Source of the DNA: Klenkia brasiliensis
GTDB lineage: Bacteria > Actinomycetota > Actinomycetes > Mycobacteriales > Geodermatophilaceae
DNA length: 64,000 bases
Direction of reading: 5' to 3'
NCBI RefSeq assembly: GCF_900100695.1
Contig: NZ_FNCF01000003.1
Span: 496,001 to 560,000, forward strand
Part shown: positions 42,790-51,279 of the stretch, in pieces
Layout: each line of letters begins with the position of its first letter
Numbering within the stretch: position 1 is the stretch's first letter
Made by a program: the position numbers and the translations under genes
The notes under the pieces: generated by a model
What the model saw: the letters and a program-made list of their open reading frames with translations, nothing else
What the model was told of the DNA's origin: nothing
The model's database searches: none

Positions 42790-43007
42790 GGCGACCAACC
42801 CCCGGTGATCATGGGGTTGTTGCCGGGCGCCCCGCCGTCCACCGCGTGGCGGACGGCAACAGCCCCATGATCACCGGCAGGCAACGGTGGCCGGCGGATG
42901 TAGCACGATGGGGCGGGCGGTGGGCCCGGGTGTGCACATCCCGGGCGGCCCTCCACAGATGGCGCCGCGCCGCGGTCGGTCGGGTCCGGCCGGCCGACGC
43001 TCCTGGG
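42790..43007. repeat. Palindromic repeat copy 1 and upstream region of the Vsr-like gene
   Basis: Arms 42802-42825 (begins CCGGTGATCATGGGG) and 42854-42877 are 24 nt long and complementary with one mismatch, around a 28-nt loop. The right arm and flank CCCCATGATCACCGGCAGG (42863-42881) are identical to bases 43944-43962 of copy 2. The remaining ~125 nt before ATG 43008 hold no further gene; a TAGCAC near 42899 is a weak promoter candidate. The element looks like a REP- or MITE-type repeat. Confidence 0.75.
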
Positions 43008-43889
43008 ATGACGGAGTTCCCCGGTACCTACACCTGGTCGGGCGCCCGCGCGGCCGGTCTGACCCGGCGGCAGATCGAGGCCGACGGCGTGCGGCTGGGC
43101 CGAGGTGTCTACCTGTCCCGCGCCGAGGACGACGACCTGCGCACCCGGTGCCGCGCCTGGGCCGAGGTGCTGCCCGACGGCGCCGCCTTCGCGCTGGGCA
43201 CCGCCGCCCACCTGCTCGGGGCCCCCGTGGACGCACCCGAGGTGGTGCACGCCGTGGTGCCGCCCGACCGCCTCGTCCCCCACCGGCGCGGCTTGGTCGT
43301 GCTGCACCGCGACCTGCGCCCCGAGGACGTCGTCGACCTCGGGGGCCTGCCGGTGACGTCCGGCGCGCAGACGTTCCTGGACATGGCACGGTGCACCCGT
43401 CCCGATGAGCTGGTGGCGGTGGGCGATGCGCTCTACCGGCTGGACCACCTGGACCCGGACCGGGTGCAGGCGAGGCTGGAGCGGGCGGACGGGCTGCGCG
43501 GGGTGGTGCGGGCCAGGGCGGCCGCTCCCCGGCTCACGCCCCTGGCGATGTCGCGGCCGGAGAGCCTGGTCCGCTGCTGGATCCTCGACAGCCCGCTCCC
43601 GGACCCCGTGCCGCAGATGCCGGTGGTGAACCGGTTCGGCGTGGTCGTGACCCACGGCGACCTGGGCTTCGAGGAGTGGCGGATGATCATGGAGTACGAG
43701 GGCGCCGGCCACGCCACGCTGGAGAAGCTGCACACCGACGTCGACCGGCATTCCCTCGCTGCGGCCGACGGCTACCTCGTCCAGCGCTTCAGCGGCCGCC
43801 ACCTCGCCCGCCCCCGGCTGCTGCTGGGCAGGGTGGAGTCCGCCCTCCGGAGCCTCGGCTGGCGCCCACCTCCCGCCGCACCCTGTTGA
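43008..43889 (+). CDS. AbiEi-type winged-helix plus Vsr/DUF559-like nuclease protein, orphan
   Basis: This 293-residue protein opens with a winged-helix domain like that of AbiEi antitoxins (TYTWSGARAAGLTRRQIEADG, VRLGRGVYLSRA). It ends in a segment resembling a Vsr/DUF559 endonuclease core: EEWRMIMEYEGAGHATLEKLHTDVDRH then GYLVQRFSGRHL. No AbiEii toxin partner is adjacent. Its TGA stop (43887-43889) belongs to the left arm of the second palindromic repeat, and copy 1 lies upstream, so the gene sits inside a repeat-bounded cassette. Proteins of this type are common in actinobacteria without a proven role. Defence is a guess. Confidence 0.75.
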   Translation: MTEFPGTYTWSGARAAGLTRRQIEADGVRLGRGVYLSRAEDDDLRTRCRAWAEVLPDGAAFALGTAAHLLGAPVDAPEVVHAVVPPDRLVPHRRGLVVLHRDLRPEDVVDLGGLPVTSGAQTFLDMARCTRPDELVAVGDALYRLDHLDPDRVQARLERADGLRGVVRARAAAPRLTPLAMSRPESLVRCWILDSPLPDPVPQMPVVNRFGVVVTHGDLGFEEWRMIMEYEGAGHATLEKLHTDVDRHSLAAADGYLVQRFSGRHLARPRLLLGRVESALRSLGWRPPPAAPC

Positions 43890-43962
43890 TCATGGGGTTC
43901 TTACCGCCGGACACGCCGCCATCGGCATGTCGAGCGGGCACAACCCCATGATCACCGGCAGG
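43887..43962. repeat. Palindromic repeat copy 2, supplies the Vsr-like gene stop codon
   Basis: TGATCATGGGGTT (43887-43899) pairs perfectly with AACCCCATGATCA (43942-43954) around a 42-nt loop. The final 19 nt match copy 1 at 42863-42881. It fills the whole gap between the Vsr-like gene and the convergent M56 gene, and its first bases are the TGA stop of the former. Confidence 0.75.
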
Positions 43963-43964
43963 AG

Positions 43965-44909
43965 CTACACCAGGGCGGGGGCGAGCAGGAGGAGGGTGGG
44001 GGCCAGGACCAGGGTCACCGCGGCGCCGACGGCCAGCGGTCGCGCCCACCGCGGCAGGGGCTCGGGCGGGTCGAGCAGCCTCGTCACCCGGGCGGTCAGC
44101 ACTCCCCCGCCCGCGGCCAGCGCACCGGTCGGCGCCCCGCCCTCGGCGGCGGCCACGATCGCCCGGGCCAGCACGCGCCGGGGGCCAGGTCCGGGGACCG
44201 AGCGCAGGGCGACGTCGTCGGCCCGCATCTCCACCAGGTCACGGACGGCGTCGTGCGCCCGGTCGGCGGCCGGCAGCACGGGCAGCGCCTCCCGCCACGC
44301 CACGAACGGCAGCAGCAGCAGGTGGTGCCGCTCGGCCAGGTGCGCCCGCTCGTGCGCCACGACGGCGGCCAGCTCGTCGGCGGCGAACTCCTCGACCATG
44401 CCCGAGGAGAGCACCAGCAGGGGGCGGGCGCCGGGGATGCAGAACGCGGCGGGCACCGGGGAGTCCAGCACCCGGGCCTCGACGCCGGGCACCTCGTCGA
44501 CTCCACGGTGCACCAGCAGCTCGAGCAGGGCGCGGTGCCGGGCCCGGGTGCGGGCGGTGCGCACCAGCGCGAGGGCCAGCACGCCGAGCAGCTCCAGCGC
44601 CAGGACGGCGGCCAGGGTCTGGGCGACCCAGTGGTCGCCGCGCACCGGCTGGGCGGGCAGCTCGCCGGTGAACCAGTGCTGCGCCCACGCCCACCAGGCC
44701 TCCGGCAGCGACCCGCCCCACGGCGACAACCCGTGCACCAGCAGCGCGCCGATGATCGACAGGCCACCGGCCAGGCCGATCGCCTGCCAGCAGACCAGCG
44801 CGGCCACCGGATCGCGCCGCGGCCACCGCGCCCGCGAGAGCACGGCGGGCACCGGCCACGCCAGCGCGAGCGCCAGCAGGCCGAGCAGCAGCGCGCTCAG
44901 CGGCAGCAC
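43965..44909 (-). CDS. M56-family (BlaR1-like) membrane metalloprotease
   Basis: This 314-residue protein has transmembrane helices near residues 3-24, 36-60 and 95-117 plus one at the C-terminus, and a cytoplasmic zinc-protease motif AHERAHLAERHH with HExxH at 186-190. Unlike staphylococcal BlaR1 it has no penicillin-binding sensor domain, so the signal is not clearly a beta-lactam. It overlaps no gene but lies 10 nt after the BlaI-like repressor on the same strand, a standard pair in which the protease inactivates the repressor. The pair is divergent from cytochrome bd genes. GTG 44909 starts at a hydrophobic helix. Confidence 0.88.
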   Translation of the reverse strand: MLPLSALLLGLLALALAWPVPAVLSRARWPRRDPVAALVCWQAIGLAGGLSIIGALLVHGLSPWGGSLPEAWWAWAQHWFTGELPAQPVRGDHWVAQTLAAVLALELLGVLALALVRTARTRARHRALLELLVHRGVDEVPGVEARVLDSPVPAAFCIPGARPLLVLSSGMVEEFAADELAAVVAHERAHLAERHHLLLLPFVAWREALPVLPAADRAHDAVRDLVEMRADDVALRSVPGPGPRRVLARAIVAAAEGGAPTGALAAGGGVLTARVTRLLDPPEPLPRWARPLAVGAAVTLVLAPTLLLLAPALV

Positions 44910-44919
44910 GGGTGCGCGC

Positions 44920-45267
44920 CTAGGGCGTGTCGGCCAGCAGGGCGCGCAGCATCTCGGTCTCGCCCGGCGTGGCCGACCCGATGAACCGGGCCAGCACGGC
45001 CTGCCGGTCGGCGGCCTGGCCGAGCACCTCGTGCATCAGCTCGGCGGCGTGGTCCTCGCGGCTGGCGACGGCGGCGAACCGGCGCGGGCGCGCGTCGTCG
45101 TGCCGCACGAAGCCCTTGCCCTCGAGCCGGGTCAGCACCGTGTGCACGGTGGTCAGCGCCAGCCCCCGGTCGGCCAGCGCGTCCCGCAGCTCCGCCGCCG
45201 ACAACGGCACGGCGCGGGACCACAGCTGGTCCATCACCGACCGCTCCAGCTCCCCCAGCGACTCCAC
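44920..45267 (-). CDS. BlaI/MecI/CopY-family repressor
   Basis: This 115-residue winged-helix repressor contains LGELERSVMDQLWSRAVPLS, LALTTVHTVLTRLEGKGFVRHDD (recognition helix) and a dimerisation tail. GTG 45267 is chosen over ATG 45288 because AGGAGG sits 4 nt upstream and family members start just before LGELE. In the divergent region lie three matching 6-5-6 palindromes, probably its operators, controlling both its own unit and cydA. Mycobacterial BlaI is known to regulate respiration-linked genes (established knowledge), which fits. Confidence 0.92.
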   Translation of the reverse strand: MESLGELERSVMDQLWSRAVPLSAAELRDALADRGLALTTVHTVLTRLEGKGFVRHDDARPRRFAAVASREDHAAELMHEVLGQAADRQAVLARFIGSATPGETEMLRALLADTP

Positions 45268-45300
45268 GGCCCCTCCTGTCTCCGACATCACCGGCAAGAC

Positions 45301-45361
45301 TTCTACCGGTTGTAGAAATCGACTTCTACGTGGCGTAGAAAGAAGTCGACCGATCGTAGAC
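45301..45361. promoter_or_regulatory. Three BlaI-type operators between blaI and cydA
   Basis: TTCTAC-CGGTT-GTAGAA (45301-45317) and TTCTAC-GTGGC-GTAGAA (45324-45340) are perfect 6-5-6 inverted repeats with identical arms. A third, GTCGAC-CGATC-GTAGAC (45345-45361), has one mismatch. Centres are 23 and 21 bp apart, about two helical turns, so dimers would bind one face of the DNA. GGAGG for cydA follows at 45368-45372. Binding by BlaI is inferred. Confidence 0.78.
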
Positions 45362-45380: not shown

Positions 45381-46937
45381 GTGGACGTGCTCGACATCGC
45401 TCGTTGGCAGTTCGGAATCACGACCGTCTACCACTTCCTGATGGTCCCGCTGACCATCGGCCTGGGGCTGCTGGTCGCCGTCATGCACACCCTCTGGGTG
45501 CGCACCGGCCGGGCCGAGTGGCTGCGGATGACCCGGTTCTGGGGCCGGATCTTCCTCATCAACTTCGTCCTGGGCGTGGCCACCGGGCTGGTGCAGGAGT
45601 TCCAGTTCGGCCTGGCATGGAGCGAGTACTCCCGCTTCGTCGGCGACGTGTTCGGCTCGATCCTGGCGCTGGAGGCCCTGCTGGCCTTCTTCCTGGAGTC
45701 CACGTTCCTGGGCCTGTGGATCTTCGGCTGGGGCCGGATCCCGAAGAAGCTGCACCTGGCCACCATCTGGGCCGCCGTCGTCGGCTCGACGATCAGCGCG
45801 TACTTCATCATCGCGGCGAACTCCTGGATGCAGCACCCGGTCGGCGTCGTCATGGACGAGGCCACCGGCCGGCCGCGGCAGGTCGACTTCCTCGCCGTCC
45901 TCACCAACAACACCGCACTGGCCGCGTTCAGCCACGCGATCGTCGCCTCGCTGATGGTCGCCGGCGGCCTGCTGGTCGGCATCGGGCTGTGGCACCTGCG
46001 CAGGCGGAAGCTGGCCGGCCGGAGCACCGAGGACGTCGACCACGCGGTGTGGCGCCGCTCCGTCCGCCTCGGCGGCTACGTCAGCCTGGCCGCCTTCCTG
46101 CTGGTGGCGCTCACCGGCGACTGGCAGGGCAAGCTGATGTACCAGCAGCAGCCGCTGAAGATGAGCTCGGCCGAGGCGCTGTGCAACACCGAGGCGCCCG
46201 CGTCGTTCTCGATCTTCGCCTTCAACAAGCTGGGCAGCAACGAGTGCGACGACGTGCACTCCTTCACCATCCCCTACATCCTCAGCTTCCTGGCCCACAG
46301 CGACTTCTCCTCCCCCGTCCCCGGGGTGAACCAGCTGCAGGAGCAGTACGCCGACGCCTACGGCGCCACCTACCCCGACGACCCGAGCTTCGGCGACAAG
46401 GCCGGCGAGCCGATCGACTACACGCCGGTCCTCGCGGTCACCTACTGGGGCTTCCGGCTGATGATCGGGATGGGCATGGTGTCGGCCGCGGTCGCCGCCT
46501 ACGCCCTCTGGTCGACCAGGAAGGGCAGGGTGCCGACGTCCCGGATCGGGGTGTACGGCTCGCTGCTGGCCGTCGGCGCCCCGTTCGTCGGCAACGCCGC
46601 CGGCTGGATCTTCACCGAGATGGGCCGGCAACCCTTCGTCGTCGTCCCCAACCCCGACGTCCCGCGCGCCGAGCAGATCTACTTCTTCACCGCCCAGGCC
46701 GTCTCCCCCGGGGTCACCGCCGCCGAGGTCTGGACCTCGTTGATCAGCCTCGCCGTGCTCTACGCCGCGCTCGCGGTGGTCGAGTTCGGGCTGATCGTCA
46801 GGTTCGTCCGGGCCGGCATCACCGAGGGCGACACCACCCCGACGCCGGGCATCGGCGGCGGGCCGAGCAGGGACGACGACGAATCCACCCGACCGGACGA
46901 CGACGCCAGCGACGACGTCCTGCAGTTCGCGTACTGA
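45381..46937 (+). CDS. cydA: Cytochrome bd oxidase subunit I
   Basis: This 518-residue membrane quinol oxidase subunit reduces O2 to water at high affinity. It has haem-ligand His18 in TTVYHFLMVPLTIG, the helix with EFQFGLAWSEYSRFVG, a second haem His in AFSHAIVASLMVAGG, and the GRQPF motif (MGRQPFVVVP) near residue 416. The Q-loop is short, as in actinobacteria. The last ~40 residues are an acidic tail. GTG 45381 has GGAGG 8 nt upstream. It is divergent from the BlaI/M56 pair and 11 nt before cydB. Confidence 0.96.
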   Translation: MDVLDIARWQFGITTVYHFLMVPLTIGLGLLVAVMHTLWVRTGRAEWLRMTRFWGRIFLINFVLGVATGLVQEFQFGLAWSEYSRFVGDVFGSILALEALLAFFLESTFLGLWIFGWGRIPKKLHLATIWAAVVGSTISAYFIIAANSWMQHPVGVVMDEATGRPRQVDFLAVLTNNTALAAFSHAIVASLMVAGGLLVGIGLWHLRRRKLAGRSTEDVDHAVWRRSVRLGGYVSLAAFLLVALTGDWQGKLMYQQQPLKMSSAEALCNTEAPASFSIFAFNKLGSNECDDVHSFTIPYILSFLAHSDFSSPVPGVNQLQEQYADAYGATYPDDPSFGDKAGEPIDYTPVLAVTYWGFRLMIGMGMVSAAVAAYALWSTRKGRVPTSRIGVYGSLLAVGAPFVGNAAGWIFTEMGRQPFVVVPNPDVPRAEQIYFFTAQAVSPGVTAAEVWTSLISLAVLYAALAVVEFGLIVRFVRAGITEGDTTPTPGIGGGPSRDDDESTRPDDDASDDVLQFAY

Positions 46938-46948
46938 GGAGCACCGCC

Positions 46949-47971
46949 ATGGACCTGCAGACCCTGTGGTTCGCCGCCGTCGCGGTGCTGTGGACCGGCT
47001 TCCTGCTGCTCGAGGGCTTCGACTTCGGCGTCGCCGCGCTGCTGCCGGTGCTGTCGAGGGGCGACGCCGCGCAGCGGCGGGCAGACAAGAACCTGATGCT
47101 GCGCACCATCGGCCCGGTCTGGGACGGCAACGAGGTGTGGCTGGTCACCGCCGTCGGCGCGGTGTTCGCCGCCTTCCCCGGCTGGTACGCCACCTGGCTG
47201 CCGGCGATGTACCTGCCCTTCGTGCTGCTCCTGCTCGCCCTCATCGTGCGGGCCGTGGCCTTCGAGTGGCGGCACCAGCGGCACGACGCGGCCTGGGACG
47301 CCACCTGGACCCGGGTCATCACCGGCGGCTCGGTGGTGGCCGCGCTCGCCATCGGCGGGGCCCTCGGCGCGACCACGCTGGGCCTGCCGATCGCCGCGGA
47401 CGGCACCCGGGTGGGCGGTGCCTTCTCCTGGGTGGGCTGGCCGGTGGCCCTCGGCGCGGTCGCGGTGCTGGCCTACTCGCTCGTGCACGGCGCGGTGTTC
47501 CTGGCGCTGAAGACCGAGGGCCCGGTGCGCGAGCGGGCCCGGGCGTTCGCGCTGCGCTGGTCGCCGCTGGCCGCGCTGCCGCTGCTGGCCTGGGCCGGGC
47601 TGGTGGTGCTCCGCTCGGGCGGGCTGGTCTCCACCGTGCTGTGGCTGGTCGCCGCGCTCGCCGTCGTCGGCACCTGGACCCGGCTGAAGGTGGACCGCGA
47701 GGGCCAGGCCTTCCTCGGCTGGGCGCTGGTGCTGCTGGCCTCGGCCGCCGCCGTGTTCGGCGCCGGGTACCCCACCGTCGTGGCCTCCACCGTGGACCCT
47801 GCGTTCGACGTGGTGGTGGGCGGCGCGTCGGTCAGCGACTACACGCTCACCGTGATGACCTGGGTCGCCGGGGTCGGCCTGCCGGTCGTGCTGGGCTACC
47901 AGGCCTGGACCTACTGGGTGTTCCGGAAGCGGCTGACCGCCGAGCCCGAGCACGAGGCCGCGCACGCATGA
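46949..47971 (+). CDS. cydB: Cytochrome bd oxidase subunit II
   Basis: This 340-residue partner of CydA has about eight or nine transmembrane helices, the N-terminal LLEGFDFGVAALLPVLS with conserved Gly/Asp, and WDGNEVWLVTAVGAVFAAFPGWYA. ATG 46949 follows the cydA stop by 11 nt with GAGGAG between. Its stop overlaps the start of the fused cydDC gene by 4 nt. Confidence 0.96.
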   Translation: MDLQTLWFAAVAVLWTGFLLLEGFDFGVAALLPVLSRGDAAQRRADKNLMLRTIGPVWDGNEVWLVTAVGAVFAAFPGWYATWLPAMYLPFVLLLLALIVRAVAFEWRHQRHDAAWDATWTRVITGGSVVAALAIGGALGATTLGLPIAADGTRVGGAFSWVGWPVALGAVAVLAYSLVHGAVFLALKTEGPVRERARAFALRWSPLAALPLLAWAGLVVLRSGGLVSTVLWLVAALAVVGTWTRLKVDREGQAFLGWALVLLASAAAVFGAGYPTVVASTVDPAFDVVVGGASVSDYTLTVMTWVAGVGLPVVLGYQAWTYWVFRKRLTAEPEHEAAHA

Positions 47972-50900
47972 ACCGTGGCCCGCTCGCCCCGCTGGACGGC
48001 GTCCCCGGCGTCACCGGGTCCGTCGTCCGGGCCGGCCTGGTCGCCCTGGTGCAGACCCTCGGCATGGTGGGCCTCGCCCTGGGCCTGGCGCACGGCCTGG
48101 CCGCCGCCGTCGACGGCCGGTCCCCGCTGGCCGCCCTGGCGCTGGCCGCCGCCGGCGCGCTGGTCCGGGCCGGCGCCGGTGCGGTCGGCGCCCGCTGGGC
48201 CAACCGGGACGCCCGGCGCAGCGAGGACGCGCTGCGCGACCGGCTGCTGGACCGGCTGACCCGTTCCCCCGCCGCGGTCGACGCCGCGGGCGGCACCGGA
48301 CCCGCCGCGGTGCTGGTCACCACCCGGCTGCACGACCTGGCCCCCGCGCTCGCCGGCTACCTGCCCGCGTTCGCGCAGACCCTCGTCGTCCCGCCGGTGC
48401 TGCTGGTCGTGCTGGCCGGCACCGACCTGCTCTCGGCCGTGCTGGTCGCGCTCACCCTGCCGCTGGTGCCGGTGTTCATGGTGCTGGTCGGGAAGTACAC
48501 CGCCGACCGCACCGCCGACGCCGCGCGGGCGCTGGACCGGATCGCCGCCCACGTCGCCGAGCTGGTCCGCGGACTGCCGGTGCTCACCGGGCTCGGCCGG
48601 GCGGCCGAGCAGACCGCCGCCCTCGCCGAGCTCGGCGACCGCCACCGCCGGACGACGACGGCGACGCTCCGGCTGGCCTTCCTCTCGGCACTGGTGCTCG
48701 AGCTCATCGCCACGCTGTCCGTGGCCCTGGTCGCGGTCACCGTCGGGCTGCGGCTGGTCGAAGGGCACCTCGGCCTGGCCACCGGGCTGACCGCGCTGCT
48801 GCTGGCCCCCGAGGCGTTCGCGCCGCTGCGGGCCCTGGGCGCGGCCTACCACGCCAACGCCGATGCGGGGCAGGCCGCGGCCGAGGCCCGCGCCGTGCTG
48901 GCCGCCCCCGACCACGCCCCGGCACCGGGCGCCCCGGCCGACGACCCGCGCGGCGCCGCCGTCGTCGTCGCCGACCTCGCGGTGCGCCACCCCGGCCGCG
49001 CGGTGCCCGCGCTCGCGCCCACCGCGCTCGTCGTCCGGCCCGGCGAGGTGGTCGCGCTGACCGGCCCCTCCGGGTCGGGCAAGTCCACCCTGCTCGCCGC
49101 GCTCGCCGGCACGCTGCCCACCACCGCGCAGGTCACCGGGACGACCACCGGGCTGCCCGACCGGGTCGCCGTCGCCCCGCAGCACCCGCGCACCACCGCC
49201 GACACCGTCGCCGACGAGCTGCGGCTGCACGCCGGCATCGACGACACCGACCCCCTGGACGCCGTGGTGGCCGAGGGCCTGGTCGTCGACGCGCTCGCCC
49301 GGGTGGGCGCCACCGACCTGGCCGGACGCCGGTGCACCACCCTGTCGCCGGGCGAGCTCCAGCGGGTGGCGCTGGCCCGCGCGCTGGTCCGGGTGCGCCG
49401 GGGTGCGGCGCTGCTGCTGCTCGACGAGCCCACCGCCCACCTCGACGAGGCCACCACCGCCCGGGTGGGCGCCGTCCTGGCCGACCTGCGGGGCTCGGTC
49501 ACCGTCGTGCTGGTCACCCACGACCCGGCGCTGGCCGCCCTGGCCGACCGCGCGGTGGCCCTCGCGTCCCCGCCCACCCCGGGTATCGGAAGCTCCACCC
49601 CCGCCCACCGGCCCGCGGCCACGGGTGGAGCTTCCGATACCCCGGCGCGGGCGGCTAGCGTGGAGACCGGCTGGCCCCGCGCGGCCCTCGCCCGGGCCGT
49701 CGCGGCGGGCACCGTCACCTCGGTGGCCGGGGTCGCGCTGACCGGCCTGTCGGGCTGGCTGGTGCTGCGCGCCGCCGAGATGCCCCCGGTGCTCACCCTG
49801 CTCGTCGCCATCGTCGGGGTGCGCGGGTTCGGCCTGCTGCGGGCCATCGCCCGGTGGGCCGAGCGGCTGGCCGCGCACGACGCCGCGCTGCGGCTGGCCG
49901 CCGGCACCCGGGTGCGGGTGTGGCGGGCCCTGGCCCGGCAGGGTCTGGCCGCCGACCGGACGCCCGGCGCGGCGCTCGCCCGCGCGGTCGGCGACGTCGG
50001 CCTGCTGCAGGACCTCTCGGTGCGGGTGCTCACCCCGCCGGCGGTGGCCGCCGCGACCGCGCTGCTCGGCTGCGGCCTGCTGGCCCTGCTCTCCCCGCCC
50101 GCCGCGGGGGGCGTGCTGGTCGTGCTGCTGCTCACCGCCGCGGTGGTGGCGGTGCTGCACCGGAGGGTGGACGCCGAGGCCGCCCGCACCGAGGCCGACC
50201 TGCGGGTGCGGGCGCTGCAGGAGGCGGCCGCCGTCCTCGAGGGTGCGGTCGACCTGCGGGCGCACGGCCTGGCGACCACCGCCGGTTCGCGGGTGCAGGC
50301 ACTGGCGGCAGCGCAGCGCACCGCGGCGGCCGGCGCCGTTCGGGCGGCCGCGCTGGCCGAGGGTGCGGTGGTGGCCGGGACCGGCCTGGCCGCCGTGGCG
50401 GCCGCCGCGCTGGGCTGGGCGTCCGGGGTGTCCGGGCCGGTCCTGGCCGTGCTGGCCCTCGCGCCGCTGGCCTTCGCCGAGCCGCTGACCGCCTGGGTCG
50501 GGTCACTGCAACGACGCGGCGCGTGGGACGCCGTCCGCGGCCGGTTGGACGCCGTGGTCGACGCCCCGGTGGCGGCCGACCCGGCCGAGCCCGTCGCCGT
50601 CCCCACCCCGGTGGACCGGCTGGCCGCGGCCGGCCTCGGAGCCGGCTGGCCCGGCGGCCCCGACGTGCTGCGGGACGTCGACCTGGCCGCCGACCGGGAC
50701 GGCTGGCTGGTGGTGCGCGGGCCGTCCGGGGCGGGCAAGTCCACGCTGCTGGCGGTGCTCATGGCGTCGCTGCGGCCGCGCGCCGGCCGCTACGACCTGG
50801 CCGGGGTGCCGGCCGGGCAGCTGACCGGGGACGACGTCCGCTCGGCCATCGCGTGGCTGCCGCAGGAGGCGCACGTGTTCGCGTCCTCGATCCGGGCCAA

Positions 50901-51279
50901 CCTGGCCCTGGCCGGCGCCCGGGGCGAGATCGGCGAGGACGCGATGCTCGCCGCGCTCACGGCCTGCGGCCTCGGCCCGCTGCTGGCCGGGCTGCCCGAC
51001 GGTCTGGACACCCCGGTCGGGGCCGGGGGCACGGCGCTGTCCGGCGGGGAGCGCCGGCGGCTGGCGGCGGCCCGGGCGCTGCTGGCCGGCCGGGACGTCG
51101 TCCTGCTCGACGAGCCGACCGCGCACCTGGACCGGCCGACCGCGCAGCGGCTGGTCACCGACCTGCGCACCGCCCTCGCCGGGCGGGTGGTGGTCTGCGT
51201 GACGCACGACGACCGGGTCGCCGGCCCGGACGACACGACCCTCACCCTCGATGCGAGGGTGAGGGTCGCGGCGGGCTGA
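47968..51279 (+). CDS. cydDC: Fused CydDC ABC exporter needed for cytochrome bd assembly
   Basis: This 1103-residue protein joins the CydD and CydC half-transporters. The first half has transmembrane helices (about 15-290), Walker A GPSGSGKST near residue 366, an unusual signature LSPGELQRVA, and Walker B LLLLDEPTAHLD. The second half has TM helices (about 580-840), Walker A GPSGAGKST near 918, signature LSGGERRRLA, and VLLDEPTAHLD. The family exports glutathione/cysteine-type reductants (mycothiol in actinobacteria is an inference) or haem for bd assembly. The linker at residues ~538-558 is encoded by a palindrome with 20-nt arms, and the last codons form another hairpin. Fused cydDC is known in other actinobacteria. 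Confidence 0.93.
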   Translation: MNRGPLAPLDGVPGVTGSVVRAGLVALVQTLGMVGLALGLAHGLAAAVDGRSPLAALALAAAGALVRAGAGAVGARWANRDARRSEDALRDRLLDRLTRSPAAVDAAGGTGPAAVLVTTRLHDLAPALAGYLPAFAQTLVVPPVLLVVLAGTDLLSAVLVALTLPLVPVFMVLVGKYTADRTADAARALDRIAAHVAELVRGLPVLTGLGRAAEQTAALAELGDRHRRTTTATLRLAFLSALVLELIATLSVALVAVTVGLRLVEGHLGLATGLTALLLAPEAFAPLRALGAAYHANADAGQAAAEARAVLAAPDHAPAPGAPADDPRGAAVVVADLAVRHPGRAVPALAPTALVVRPGEVVALTGPSGSGKSTLLAALAGTLPTTAQVTGTTTGLPDRVAVAPQHPRTTADTVADELRLHAGIDDTDPLDAVVAEGLVVDALARVGATDLAGRRCTTLSPGELQRVALARALVRVRRGAALLLLDEPTAHLDEATTARVGAVLADLRGSVTVVLVTHDPALAALADRAVALASPPTPGIGSSTPAHRPAATGGASDTPARAASVETGWPRAALARAVAAGTVTSVAGVALTGLSGWLVLRAAEMPPVLTLLVAIVGVRGFGLLRAIARWAERLAAHDAALRLAAGTRVRVWRALARQGLAADRTPGAALARAVGDVGLLQDLSVRVLTPPAVAAATALLGCGLLALLSPPAAGGVLVVLLLTAAVVAVLHRRVDAEAARTEADLRVRALQEAAAVLEGAVDLRAHGLATTAGSRVQALAAAQRTAAAGAVRAAALAEGAVVAGTGLAAVAAAALGWASGVSGPVLAVLALAPLAFAEPLTAWVGSLQRRGAWDAVRGRLDAVVDAPVAADPAEPVAVPTPVDRLAAAGLGAGWPGGPDVLRDVDLAADRDGWLVVRGPSGAGKSTLLAVLMASLRPRAGRYDLAGVPAGQLTGDDVRSAIAWLPQEAHVFASSIRANLALAGARGEIGEDAMLAALTACGLGPLLAGLPDGLDTPVGAGGTALSGGERRRLAAARALLAGRDVVLLDEPTAHLDRPTAQRLVTDLRTALAGRVVVCVTHDDRVAGPDDTTLTLDARVRVAAG
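49581..49642. repeat. Palindromic element inside cydDC linker
   Basis: The left arm GGGTATCGGAAGCTCCACCC (49581-49600) and the right arm (49623-49642) are perfect 20-nt reverse complements around a 22-nt loop. The frame stays open across it and encodes PGIGSSTPAHRPAATGGASD between the two ABC halves. It looks like an inserted intragenic repeat. Confidence 0.75.
51236..51268. terminator. Hairpin in the last codons of cydDC
   Basis: CGACCCTCACCCTCG (51236-51250) and its exact reverse complement (51254-51268) flank a 3-nt loop, inside the coding sequence 11 nt before the stop. It may work with the hairpin that follows. Confidence 0.5.

What the first reader, a model, noticed from the sequence alone, without database searches (positions are those of the whole stretch)
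45301..45361. BlaI/M56 repressor-protease pair may control cytochrome bd through three phased operators
Two perfect TTCTAC-N5-GTAGAA palindromes and a third one-mismatch site lie between a BlaI/M56 pair and divergent cydA-cydB-cydDC, with centres 23 and 21 bp apart. BlaI/BlaR pairs are best known from beta-lactam resistance, but this M56 protein lacks a penicillin-binding sensor. The layout suggests a membrane protease signal switching a terminal oxidase. Mycobacterial BlaI already has links to respiration genes; a dedicated cyd switch would extend that.
Basis: partly seen in the sequence, partly recalled or inferred. Interest (0 to 1): 0.8.

Follow-up and report, generated by a model that had tools for sequence, protein, structure and literature searches.

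The report
Repressor-protease switch for cytochrome bd
A soil bacterium carries a repressor and a membrane protease, cousins of the pair that switches on penicillin resistance in other bacteria, placed back to back with the genes for a backup respiratory enzyme, and comparison of genomes suggests that this pair is an old switch that turns the backup enzyme on, probably when normal respiration fails.

Summary
The two perfect TTCTAC-N5-GTAGAA palindromes are real and are the only perfect copies in the 4.45 Mb Klenkia genome. The third "operator" does not hold up: 3 mismatches, not conserved. In 96 family genomes, the 77 with a divergent blaI/cydA pair are exactly the 77 with perfect sites. The sites recur between blaI-protease and cydA in Brevibacterium and in unnamed families; where cydDC lies apart it has its own site. 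In mycobacterial-type genomes blaI is unlinked, yet a one-letter variant (TACTAC-N5-GT[A/C]GTA) stands before cydA in 8 of 8, before blaI in 6 and before ATP-synthase genes in at least 3. In one family, sites also precede heme, flavohaemoglobin, bc1-aa3 and isocitrate-lyase genes. Best reading: BlaI represses cydABDC and its own operon; the sensor-domain-free protease relieves repression. The signal is inferred, most likely failure of the main respiratory chain. Against: most cydA-bearing genomes of the class lack these sites, and one distant BlaI-protease locus has sites but no cyd. Publications already credit tuberculosis BlaI with binding cyd and ATP-synthase promoters, so this is a dedicated variant of a known kind, adding an operator code, a wider regulon and a testable sensor.

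The parts
45301..45317 (.). operator O1, perfect palindrome TTCTACCGGTTGTAGAA
   Evidence: two or three sites with up to 2 mismatches in each of 72 relatives (sequences)
45324..45340 (.). operator O2, perfect palindrome TTCTACGTGGCGTAGAA, cydA-proximal
   Evidence: arms 1.97 bits per position against 0.95 in the spacer and 0.54 in the flanks over 72 loci anchored on this site (anchoring allows 1 mismatch and so favours the arms)
   Evidence: 3 mismatches to the consensus; 70 of 72 relatives have 4 or more mismatches there
44920..45297 (-). blaI, BlaI/MecI-family winged-helix repressor (125 aa if TTG at 45297, 122 aa if ATG at 45288)
   Evidence: PF03965 E 6e-19; the only match of that family in the genome; best solved-structure match 2g9w
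43965..44909 (-). membrane metalloprotease (M48/M56 type, HERAH at residue 186, EMRADD at 227), 314 aa, no C-terminal sensor domain
   Evidence: PF01435 above cut-off, PF05569 below cut-off; invariant H, E, H and E, A, D, D columns in 43 sequences; model pLDDT 84.8; motifs and hydropathy
45381..46937 (+). cydA, cytochrome bd oxidase subunit I
   Evidence: PF01654 E 7e-148
46949..47971 (+). cydB, cytochrome bd oxidase subunit II
   Evidence: TIGR00203 above cut-off
47968..51279 (+). cydDC, fused CydD-CydC ABC exporter
   Evidence: TIGR02857 and TIGR02868 above cut-off in one 1103-aa frame

Best explanation
BlaI binds the two palindromes between blaI and cydA and represses both divergent operons: its own (blaI-protease) and cydA-cydB-cydDC. 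The membrane protease, which has the zinc-protease catalytic residues but no penicillin-binding sensor, is activated through its membrane part and relieves repression, by analogy with BlaR1 acting on BlaI, so cytochrome bd is made when needed. The best-supported guess for the signal is loss of electron flow through the bc1-aa3 (heme-copper) branch, for example by copper shortage, nitric oxide or inhibitors. Shown by sequence comparison: the operators, their conservation, their one-to-one tie to this BlaI lineage and to cyd in the family, and the genes that follow such sites in other actinobacteria. Inferred: that BlaI is the binder, that it represses, that the protease inactivates it, and the signal.
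For: (1) Two perfect sites, unique in the genome; only one BlaI-family match in the genome. (2) Family sample of 96 genomes: 77 have divergent blaI-cydA, the same 77 have perfect sites, 19 have neither; all 75 sites whose positions the tool listed, in 40 genomes, lie in the blaI-cydA gap. (3) Of 31 other cydA-family matches there, none has a divergent BlaI within 600 bp; 12 of the 31 were fetched and none of the stretches has a perfect site. (4) 80 named BlaI loci: 79 have cydA divergent next door (the 80th is cut by its contig end), 80 have a perfect site and 80 a protease match on the other side. (5) Other families of the class sample: site before cydA beside blaI-protease in 11 of 11 site-bearing f9 genomes and 3 of 4 site-bearing f4 genomes; cydDC lying apart from cydAB has its own site in 2 f9 genomes. 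(6) Mycobacterial-type genomes: TACTAC-N5-GT[A/C]GTA before cydA in 8 of 8, before the main blaI in 6 of 8, before atpI-atpB in 3 (not every other match was looked at). [quoted passage not shown] PMC5473688 says BlaI binds cytochrome bd and ATP-synthase promoters, citing Sala 2009 (passages). (7) Signal: genes up in Mtb when copper is short or bc1-aa3 is inhibited include cyd, ATP synthase and icl, with blaI discussed among them (PMC7924339 section 8), or cydABDC, qcrABC and ATP synthase (PMC12140626 section 6).
Against: No binding, cleavage or expression data for Klenkia. Most cydA-bearing genomes of the class sample (at least 244 of 300) have no perfect TTCTAC-N5-GTAGAA site; among f9, 9 of 20 genomes have cydA but no perfect site, and f4 genome G614 too (BlaI not sought there). 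G622 (f4) has blaI-protease and 15 sites but no cydA match; G309 (f86) has BlaI-M56 with the genome's only two sites beside DUF3105/DUF305 genes while its cydA matches lie elsewhere; G376 (f83) has BlaI and a site beside a DUF347 gene and no cydA match. In G622 and its family many sites are not at cyd. The protease scores under Pfam's M56 cut-off and Foldseek gave no significant match (BlaR1 at E 3.4-4.0). In Mtb, amoxicillin-clavulanate raised blaI-blaR and cydAB while ATP-synthase genes fell (PMC5473688), against one simple regulon. PMC7924339 cites IdeR control of blaI and SenX3/RegX3 control of cydB, so other regulators act too.
Confidence: 0.8

Rival explanations
1. The palindromes serve only autoregulation of blaI-protease; cydABDC is a bystander that happens to start on the other side.
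For: BlaI-family repressors commonly autoregulate (recalled); G622 has a site before blaI and no cydA match; some Geodermatophilus loci have an extra palindrome next to blaI.
Against: Sites stand before cydA where blaI is not adjacent (8 of 8 mycobacterial-type genomes) and before cydDC lying apart; f87 genomes have sites right before a different cydA type, in three loci without blaI in the fetched stretch (L185, L190, L196).
Confidence: 0.07
2. Another transcription factor (for example a redox regulator) binds the palindromes and BlaI is unrelated.
For: No binding data here; other regulators act on cyd in mycobacteria (PMC7924339).
Against: Exact co-occurrence of sites with this BlaI lineage in 96 genomes; the variant motif precedes blaI itself and ATP-synthase genes, a published BlaI target region; the recognition-helix region is conserved as A.TTV.TVL.RLE.KG in at least 95% of 103 BlaIs.
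Confidence: 0.05
3. It is a beta-lactam or cell-wall sensing system, as in staphylococci, and cytochrome bd is one of its outputs.
For: Family names; Mtb blaI-blaR and cydAB both rise after amoxicillin-clavulanate (PMC5473688, passages).
Against: No penicillin-binding domain in the 314-aa protease; no beta-lactamase among the window proteins put to Pfam or NCBIfam (not all window genes were searched); genes after sites in other clades are largely respiratory and heme genes.
Confidence: 0.08
4. The protease senses copper or heme status directly rather than electron flow.
For: Sites before a CopC gene (L182) and DUF3105/DUF305 genes (L200), before hemE in four f87 genomes and before HemQ-ferrochelatase in two f4 genomes; copper starvation induces cyd and ATP-synthase genes in an Mtb mutant (PMC12140626).
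Against: Q203, a QcrB inhibitor and no copper agent, gives a like response (PMC12140626 section 6); no metal-site search was made on the protease.
Confidence: 0.25

Closest known systems
Mycobacterium tuberculosis BlaI-BlaR (Rv1846c-Rv1845c)
   Same: BlaI related to 2g9w (E 4.7e-16; that 2g9w is Rv1846c is recalled); partner protease without extracellular sensor domain (PMC5473688); same AxCxPG, HERAH and EMxADD motifs in the protease beside a BlaI that matches 2g9w end to end; operator core CTAC-N5-GTAG/GTCG shared; cyd among the published targets.
   Different: Here the pair sits divergently beside cydABDC, with two operators and no other perfect site in the genome; operator TTCTAC instead of TACTAC; published mycobacterial targets also include ATP synthase, blaC and sigC.
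Staphylococcus aureus BlaI-BlaR1 / MecI-MecR1
   Same: Repressor plus membrane zinc protease gene pair; palindromic operators (staphylococcal side recalled).
   Different: No penicillin-binding sensor; target is a respiratory oxidase; no significant fold match to BlaR1 (E 3.4-4.0); profile match to BlaR1 only E 2.7.
Rex, SenX3-RegX3 and similar regulators of cyd
   Same: They control cytochrome bd in other actinobacteria (SenX3-RegX3: cited in PMC7924339; Rex: recalled).
   Different: Unrelated proteins and operators (recalled).

Membership tests
BlaI/MecI repressors (PF03965) | Penicillinase_R winged-helix domain above Pfam's cut-off | tested here: met
   68.9 bits against 22.6
BlaI/MecI repressors (PF03965) | palindromic operators at own and target promoters | tested here: met
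   (sequence evidence only; promoters not mapped)
BlaI/MecI repressors (PF03965) | binds DNA as a dimer and is inactivated by its partner protease | not testable with these tools
   needs EMSA and cleavage assays
BlaR1/MecR1 sensors | zinc-protease residues HExxH and a downstream Glu in a membrane protein | tested here: met
   HERAH and EMRADD; the H, E, H and E columns are invariant in 43 sequences
BlaR1/MecR1 sensors | Peptidase_M56 model above Pfam's cut-off | tested here: not met
   19.4 bits against 31; M48 model 37.8 against 20.3
BlaR1/MecR1 sensors | C-terminal penicillin-binding sensor domain | tested here: not met
   protein ends after the last membrane helix, 314 aa
BlaR1/MecR1 sensors | fold match to solved BlaR1 | tested here: inconclusive
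   Foldseek E 3.4-4.0; second aligner not available
Mycobacterial BlaI respiratory regulon | cyd among the targets | tested here: met
   operators at cydA; published for Mtb
Mycobacterial BlaI respiratory regulon | ATP-synthase operon among the targets | tested here: inconclusive
   no perfect TTCTAC-N5-GTAGAA site outside the blaI-cydA gap in this genome; the atp promoter was not located nor searched for diverged sites

The most novel reading that the evidence does not exclude
BlaI and its sensor-free membrane protease form an ancient actinobacterial respiratory-failure switch: the protease senses a stalled bc1-aa3 branch inside the membrane and destroys BlaI, releasing a regulon that is cytochrome bd alone in Geodermatophilaceae, cytochrome bd plus ATP synthase in mycobacteria, and heme synthesis, NO detoxification and the bc1-aa3 complex as well in an unnamed family (f4); beta-lactam sensing in firmicutes would be a different use of the same kind of device.
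Probability: 0.4. Interest if true: 0.85.

Novelty: new variant of a known kind. Interest (0 to 1): 0.7.

Why it matters
Blocking the bc1-aa3 oxidase in mycobacteria induces cytochrome bd and ATP synthase (PMC12140626 section 6), a compensation that matters for respiratory drugs. The section and passages of that paper that I read name no regulator for it. The operator code found here gives a concrete candidate, BlaI and its orphan-signal protease, and a clean model in soil bacteria, where in the genome studied the only perfect sites are those between blaI and cydA.

Tried and rejected
Third operator: rejected. Strict helical phasing: rejected as a general feature. Beta-lactam sensing: unlikely, no sensor domain. 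Fold comparison with BlaR1: no significant match; profile search of solved structures gave HtpX at E 0.0043 and BlaR1 only at E 2.7. BlaI tree of 54 rows: 35 rows group together (support 81/87, not starred), namely 33 cyd-linked BlaIs plus those of G622 and G309; the mycobacterial ones form their own group (98/98); f9 falls in two groups; several branches are long. Taken as consistent, not as proof. Sites at up to 2 mismatches are not enriched in the genome over the reversed control (60 against 88). Some f87 sites lie inside called frames or before genes without a respiratory link (L178-L180, L183, L184), and f4/f9 sites L159, L161, L167, L173, L174 have no clear reading. One or a few sites per f87 genome were looked at, not all sites of the 33 site-bearing f87 genomes. 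The single sites of three f5 genomes and one f8 genome were not examined. The cydA list of the class search was cut by the tool, so class-wide adjacency was not counted. In one search I left out 13 BlaI rows of under 24 bits and one cydA fragment of 24.3 bits, and merged two fragments of G689. For the genomes without listed site positions (37 of 77) only counts are known. cydB was first searched in a wrong frame and correctly. The phylum search and its 30 loci served only to supply some genome handles. The composition and hypergeometric figures ignore shared ancestry.

Literature: 10 searches. Among the titles they listed (not all hits were listed: 20 of 21, 10 of 36) I saw none on a BlaI-cyd switch outside mycobacteria; most listed papers were not opened, PMC4172946 (Rex, Saccharopolyspora) among them. 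Opened and read in passages: PMC12565901, PMC5473688 (12 of 27 places), PMC5874750, PMC4757040, PMC8265638, PMC10581053 (nothing on BlaI; its hits were blaIII), PMC8765290, PMC11561320, PMC8351954 (nothing on BlaI); section 8 of PMC7924339 and section 6 of PMC12140626 in full. Sala 2009, the primary source on Mtb BlaI, was not held; I know it only through the citing papers. That 2g9w is Rv1846c is recalled (the table says conserved hypothetical protein).

Full report
What is there. The window belongs to a Klenkia-like member of the Geodermatophilaceae (best BlaI match 98% in Klenkia taihuensis; taxonomy). On the minus strand lie blaI (44920-45297, PF03965) and a 314-aa membrane protease (43965-44909). 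On the plus strand lie cydA (45381-46937), cydB (46949-47971) and a fused cydDC (47968-51279). Two perfect palindromes TTCTAC-N5-GTAGAA lie between the two operons. The first begins 3 bp from the TTG or 12 bp from the ATG candidate start of blaI; the second ends 40 bp before the cydA start. A bound repressor would thus lie close to both starts; the promoters were not mapped.

More than chance. Dinucleotide shuffles of the window give 0.04 matches at up to 2 mismatches. In the 4.45 Mb genome the only two perfect copies are these, one place has 1 mismatch, and the 60 places at up to 2 mismatches are fewer than the 88 of the reversed control. blaI is the only PF03965 match in the genome.

Conservation. 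A scan with BlaI gave 119 relatives, of which the best 80 were kept. All 80 have at least one perfect palindrome, all 80 have a protease match, and 79 of 80 have cydA divergent next door; the 80th stops at a contig end. 72 are of the Geodermatophilaceae type (one, L034, is labelled Bacillus, unverified) and 8 are Brevibacterium, where BlaI is 59-67% identical to the window's but cydA only 52-54% in the 7 that have it. In 72 loci anchored on the cydA-proximal operator, the arms carry 1.97 bits per position, the 5-bp spacer 0.95 and the flanks 0.54; the anchoring (up to 1 mismatch) raises the arm value by construction, but 72 of 72 had such a site. Of these 72, 65 have two and 7 have three sites at up to 2 mismatches.

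Natural experiment in the family. In 96 genomes of the family there are 108 usable cydA-family matches and 131 usable BlaI matches. 77 cydA matches in 77 genomes have a divergent BlaI within 600 bp. Exactly those 77 genomes have a perfect palindrome; the other 19 have none. All 75 sites whose positions were listed (40 genomes) fall in the gap; for the other 37 genomes only counts were given. The 31 other cydA matches have no such BlaI; 12 of them were fetched, none of the stretches has a perfect site, and the best match in the 350 bp before cydA has 5 or 6 mismatches. The 54 other BlaI matches are not beside a cydA match. Genome G752 (one contig) has no cydA match, only BlaI matches of the other score class, and no site. 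Shared ancestry makes these counts less independent than they look.

Beyond the family. In 394 genomes of the class, 56 have a perfect site and 300 have a cydA match, so at least 244 cydA-bearing genomes have no such site: the switch is not universal. In unnamed family f9, 11 of 20 genomes have sites, and in all 11 the site stands before cydA beside blaI-protease (L147-L152, L154, L156-L158, L160); the other 9 have cydA but no perfect site, and BlaI was not sought there. In f4 it is 3 of 4 site-bearing genomes; the fourth, G622, has blaI-protease and 15 sites but no cydA match. In two f9 genomes cydDC lies apart from cydAB, on the far side of blaI-protease, and has its own site about 16 bp before its called frame (L157, L158). 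In f87, sites stand before a different cydA type in nine genomes (L132/L166, L133, L137/L185, L145, L146, L189, L190, L192, L196), with blaI in the fetched stretch in seven of them, and before hemE in four genomes (L177, L181, L187, L198). G309 (f86) is a counter-example: its two sites lie at a BlaI-M56 locus before DUF3105/DUF305 genes, and its three cydA matches are elsewhere.

Wider target set. In f4 and f9 genomes further sites lie after an Rrf2-type regulator gene and before flavohaemoglobin (L153, L176; L155 has the same flanking genes, its hmp was not put to Pfam); before a HemQ-type (chlorite-dismutase family) gene followed by ferrochelatase (L175; in L163 the HemQ gene is by Pfam, the next frame looks like ferrochelatase by eye); within a heme cluster after an amine-oxidase-family gene, probably protoporphyrinogen oxidase (L163, L172), with uroporphyrinogen decarboxylase and porphobilinogen deaminase in L172; between cytochrome oxidase subunit III and the next gene, a cytochrome c of the bc1 type (L171); before isocitrate lyase (L168); between an HTH gene (its neighbour looks like sufB by eye) and an ABC gene (L170); and before blaI itself (L169). 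Most of these are single genomes. They are respiration, heme and NO functions. Other sites (L159, L161, L167, L173, L174) have no clear reading.

Mycobacterial link. Eight genomes of family f2 in the same order were read. In one of them (G038) BlaI matches the chain of 2g9w end to end (E 6e-67), which I recall as M. tuberculosis BlaI; another (G050) matches it at E 2e-57. In 8 of 8 the region 34-79 bp before cydA carries TACTAC-N5-GT[A/C]GTA, which differs from the Klenkia operator at the second letter and, in many, by C for A in the right arm. The same pattern occurs before the main blaI in 6 of 8 (coordinates) and before atpI-atpB in 3 (L234, L223, L236; in L234 the ATP-synt_I match is 25.0 bits against a cut-off of 25.1, the ATP-synt_A match is clear). 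In G038 these three places are all the matches in the genome; in the other genomes there are further matches, at numbers not far above the reversed-pattern control, and not all were looked at. [quoted passage not shown] PMC5473688 (passages) states that BlaI binds cytochrome bd and ATP-synthase promoters, citing Sala 2009, which I could not read. The recognition-helix region reads A.TTV.TVL.RLE.KG in at least 95% of 103 cyd-type BlaIs, with H or L after TTV, and TTVMAVLQRLAKKN in 2g9w or TTVMTVLQRLARKN in G038; the M is a candidate for the change of operator letter (inference).

The protease. It has HERAH (residue 186) and EMRADD (227), whose key columns are invariant in 43 sequences, a conserved AxCxPG motif, and four strongly hydrophobic segments at residues 6-24, 35-53, 98-116 and 292-310, with two weaker ones. 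The model has mean pLDDT 84.8 and ends with a long helix at 288-312; there is no room for a sensor domain. Pfam places it nearer M48 than M56, while the mycobacterial partner (L222) passes the M56 cut-off and has the same motifs. Structural comparison with BlaR1 was not significant.

Mechanism and signal. Steps shown by sequence: operators, genes that follow them, co-occurrence. Steps inferred: BlaI binding, repression, proteolytic relief. For the signal, PMC7924339 section 8 reports cyd (rv1620-rv1624), rv1303-rv1305 and icl up in a copper-starved sigC mutant, and discusses blaI among the affected regulators; PMC8765290 (passages) reports cydAB, cydDC and ATP synthase up after clofazimine in M. 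abscessus; PMC12140626 section 6 reports cydABDC, qcrABC and ATP synthase up under copper deprivation in a chalkophore mutant, and a like pattern with Q203. The overlap with the sites found here suggests that the protease responds to a stalled bc1-aa3 branch. Against this, ATP-synthase genes fell after amoxicillin-clavulanate while blaI-blaR and cydAB rose (PMC5473688).

Verdict. The finding is real and better than stated in one way (a conserved, lineage-specific switch with an operator code and, in other lineages, a broader respiratory regulon) and weaker in another (two operators, not three). It is a dedicated variant of the known mycobacterial BlaI link to respiration.

Noticed in passing
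window 42800-42881 and 43881-43962: Two 82-nt copies (76% alike) of a long hairpin element with ends like AACCCCATGATCACCGG flank a frame (43002-43889, no Pfam match) between the sugar ABC transporter and the protease; possibly a small repeat or mobile element.
   Followed up: partly
window 47968-51279: CydD and CydC are fused into one 1103-aa protein.
   Followed up: no
L034: A contig titled Bacillus sp. AZ43 (unverified organism) carries the Geodermatophilaceae-type blaI-cyd locus; the label is probably wrong.
   Followed up: no
L200 176-1812: In G309 (f86) two palindromes stand between a BlaI-M56 pair and DUF3105/DUF305 genes, perhaps a copper-related relative of the switch.
   Followed up: partly
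L199 1139-2804: In G376 (f83) a BlaI gene with one palindrome is divergent to a DUF347 membrane protein.
   Followed up: partly
L162, L164, L165, L023-L026: Some genomes have an additional palindrome on the blaI side, away from the cydA-proximal sites, suggesting separate operators for the two promoters.
   Followed up: no
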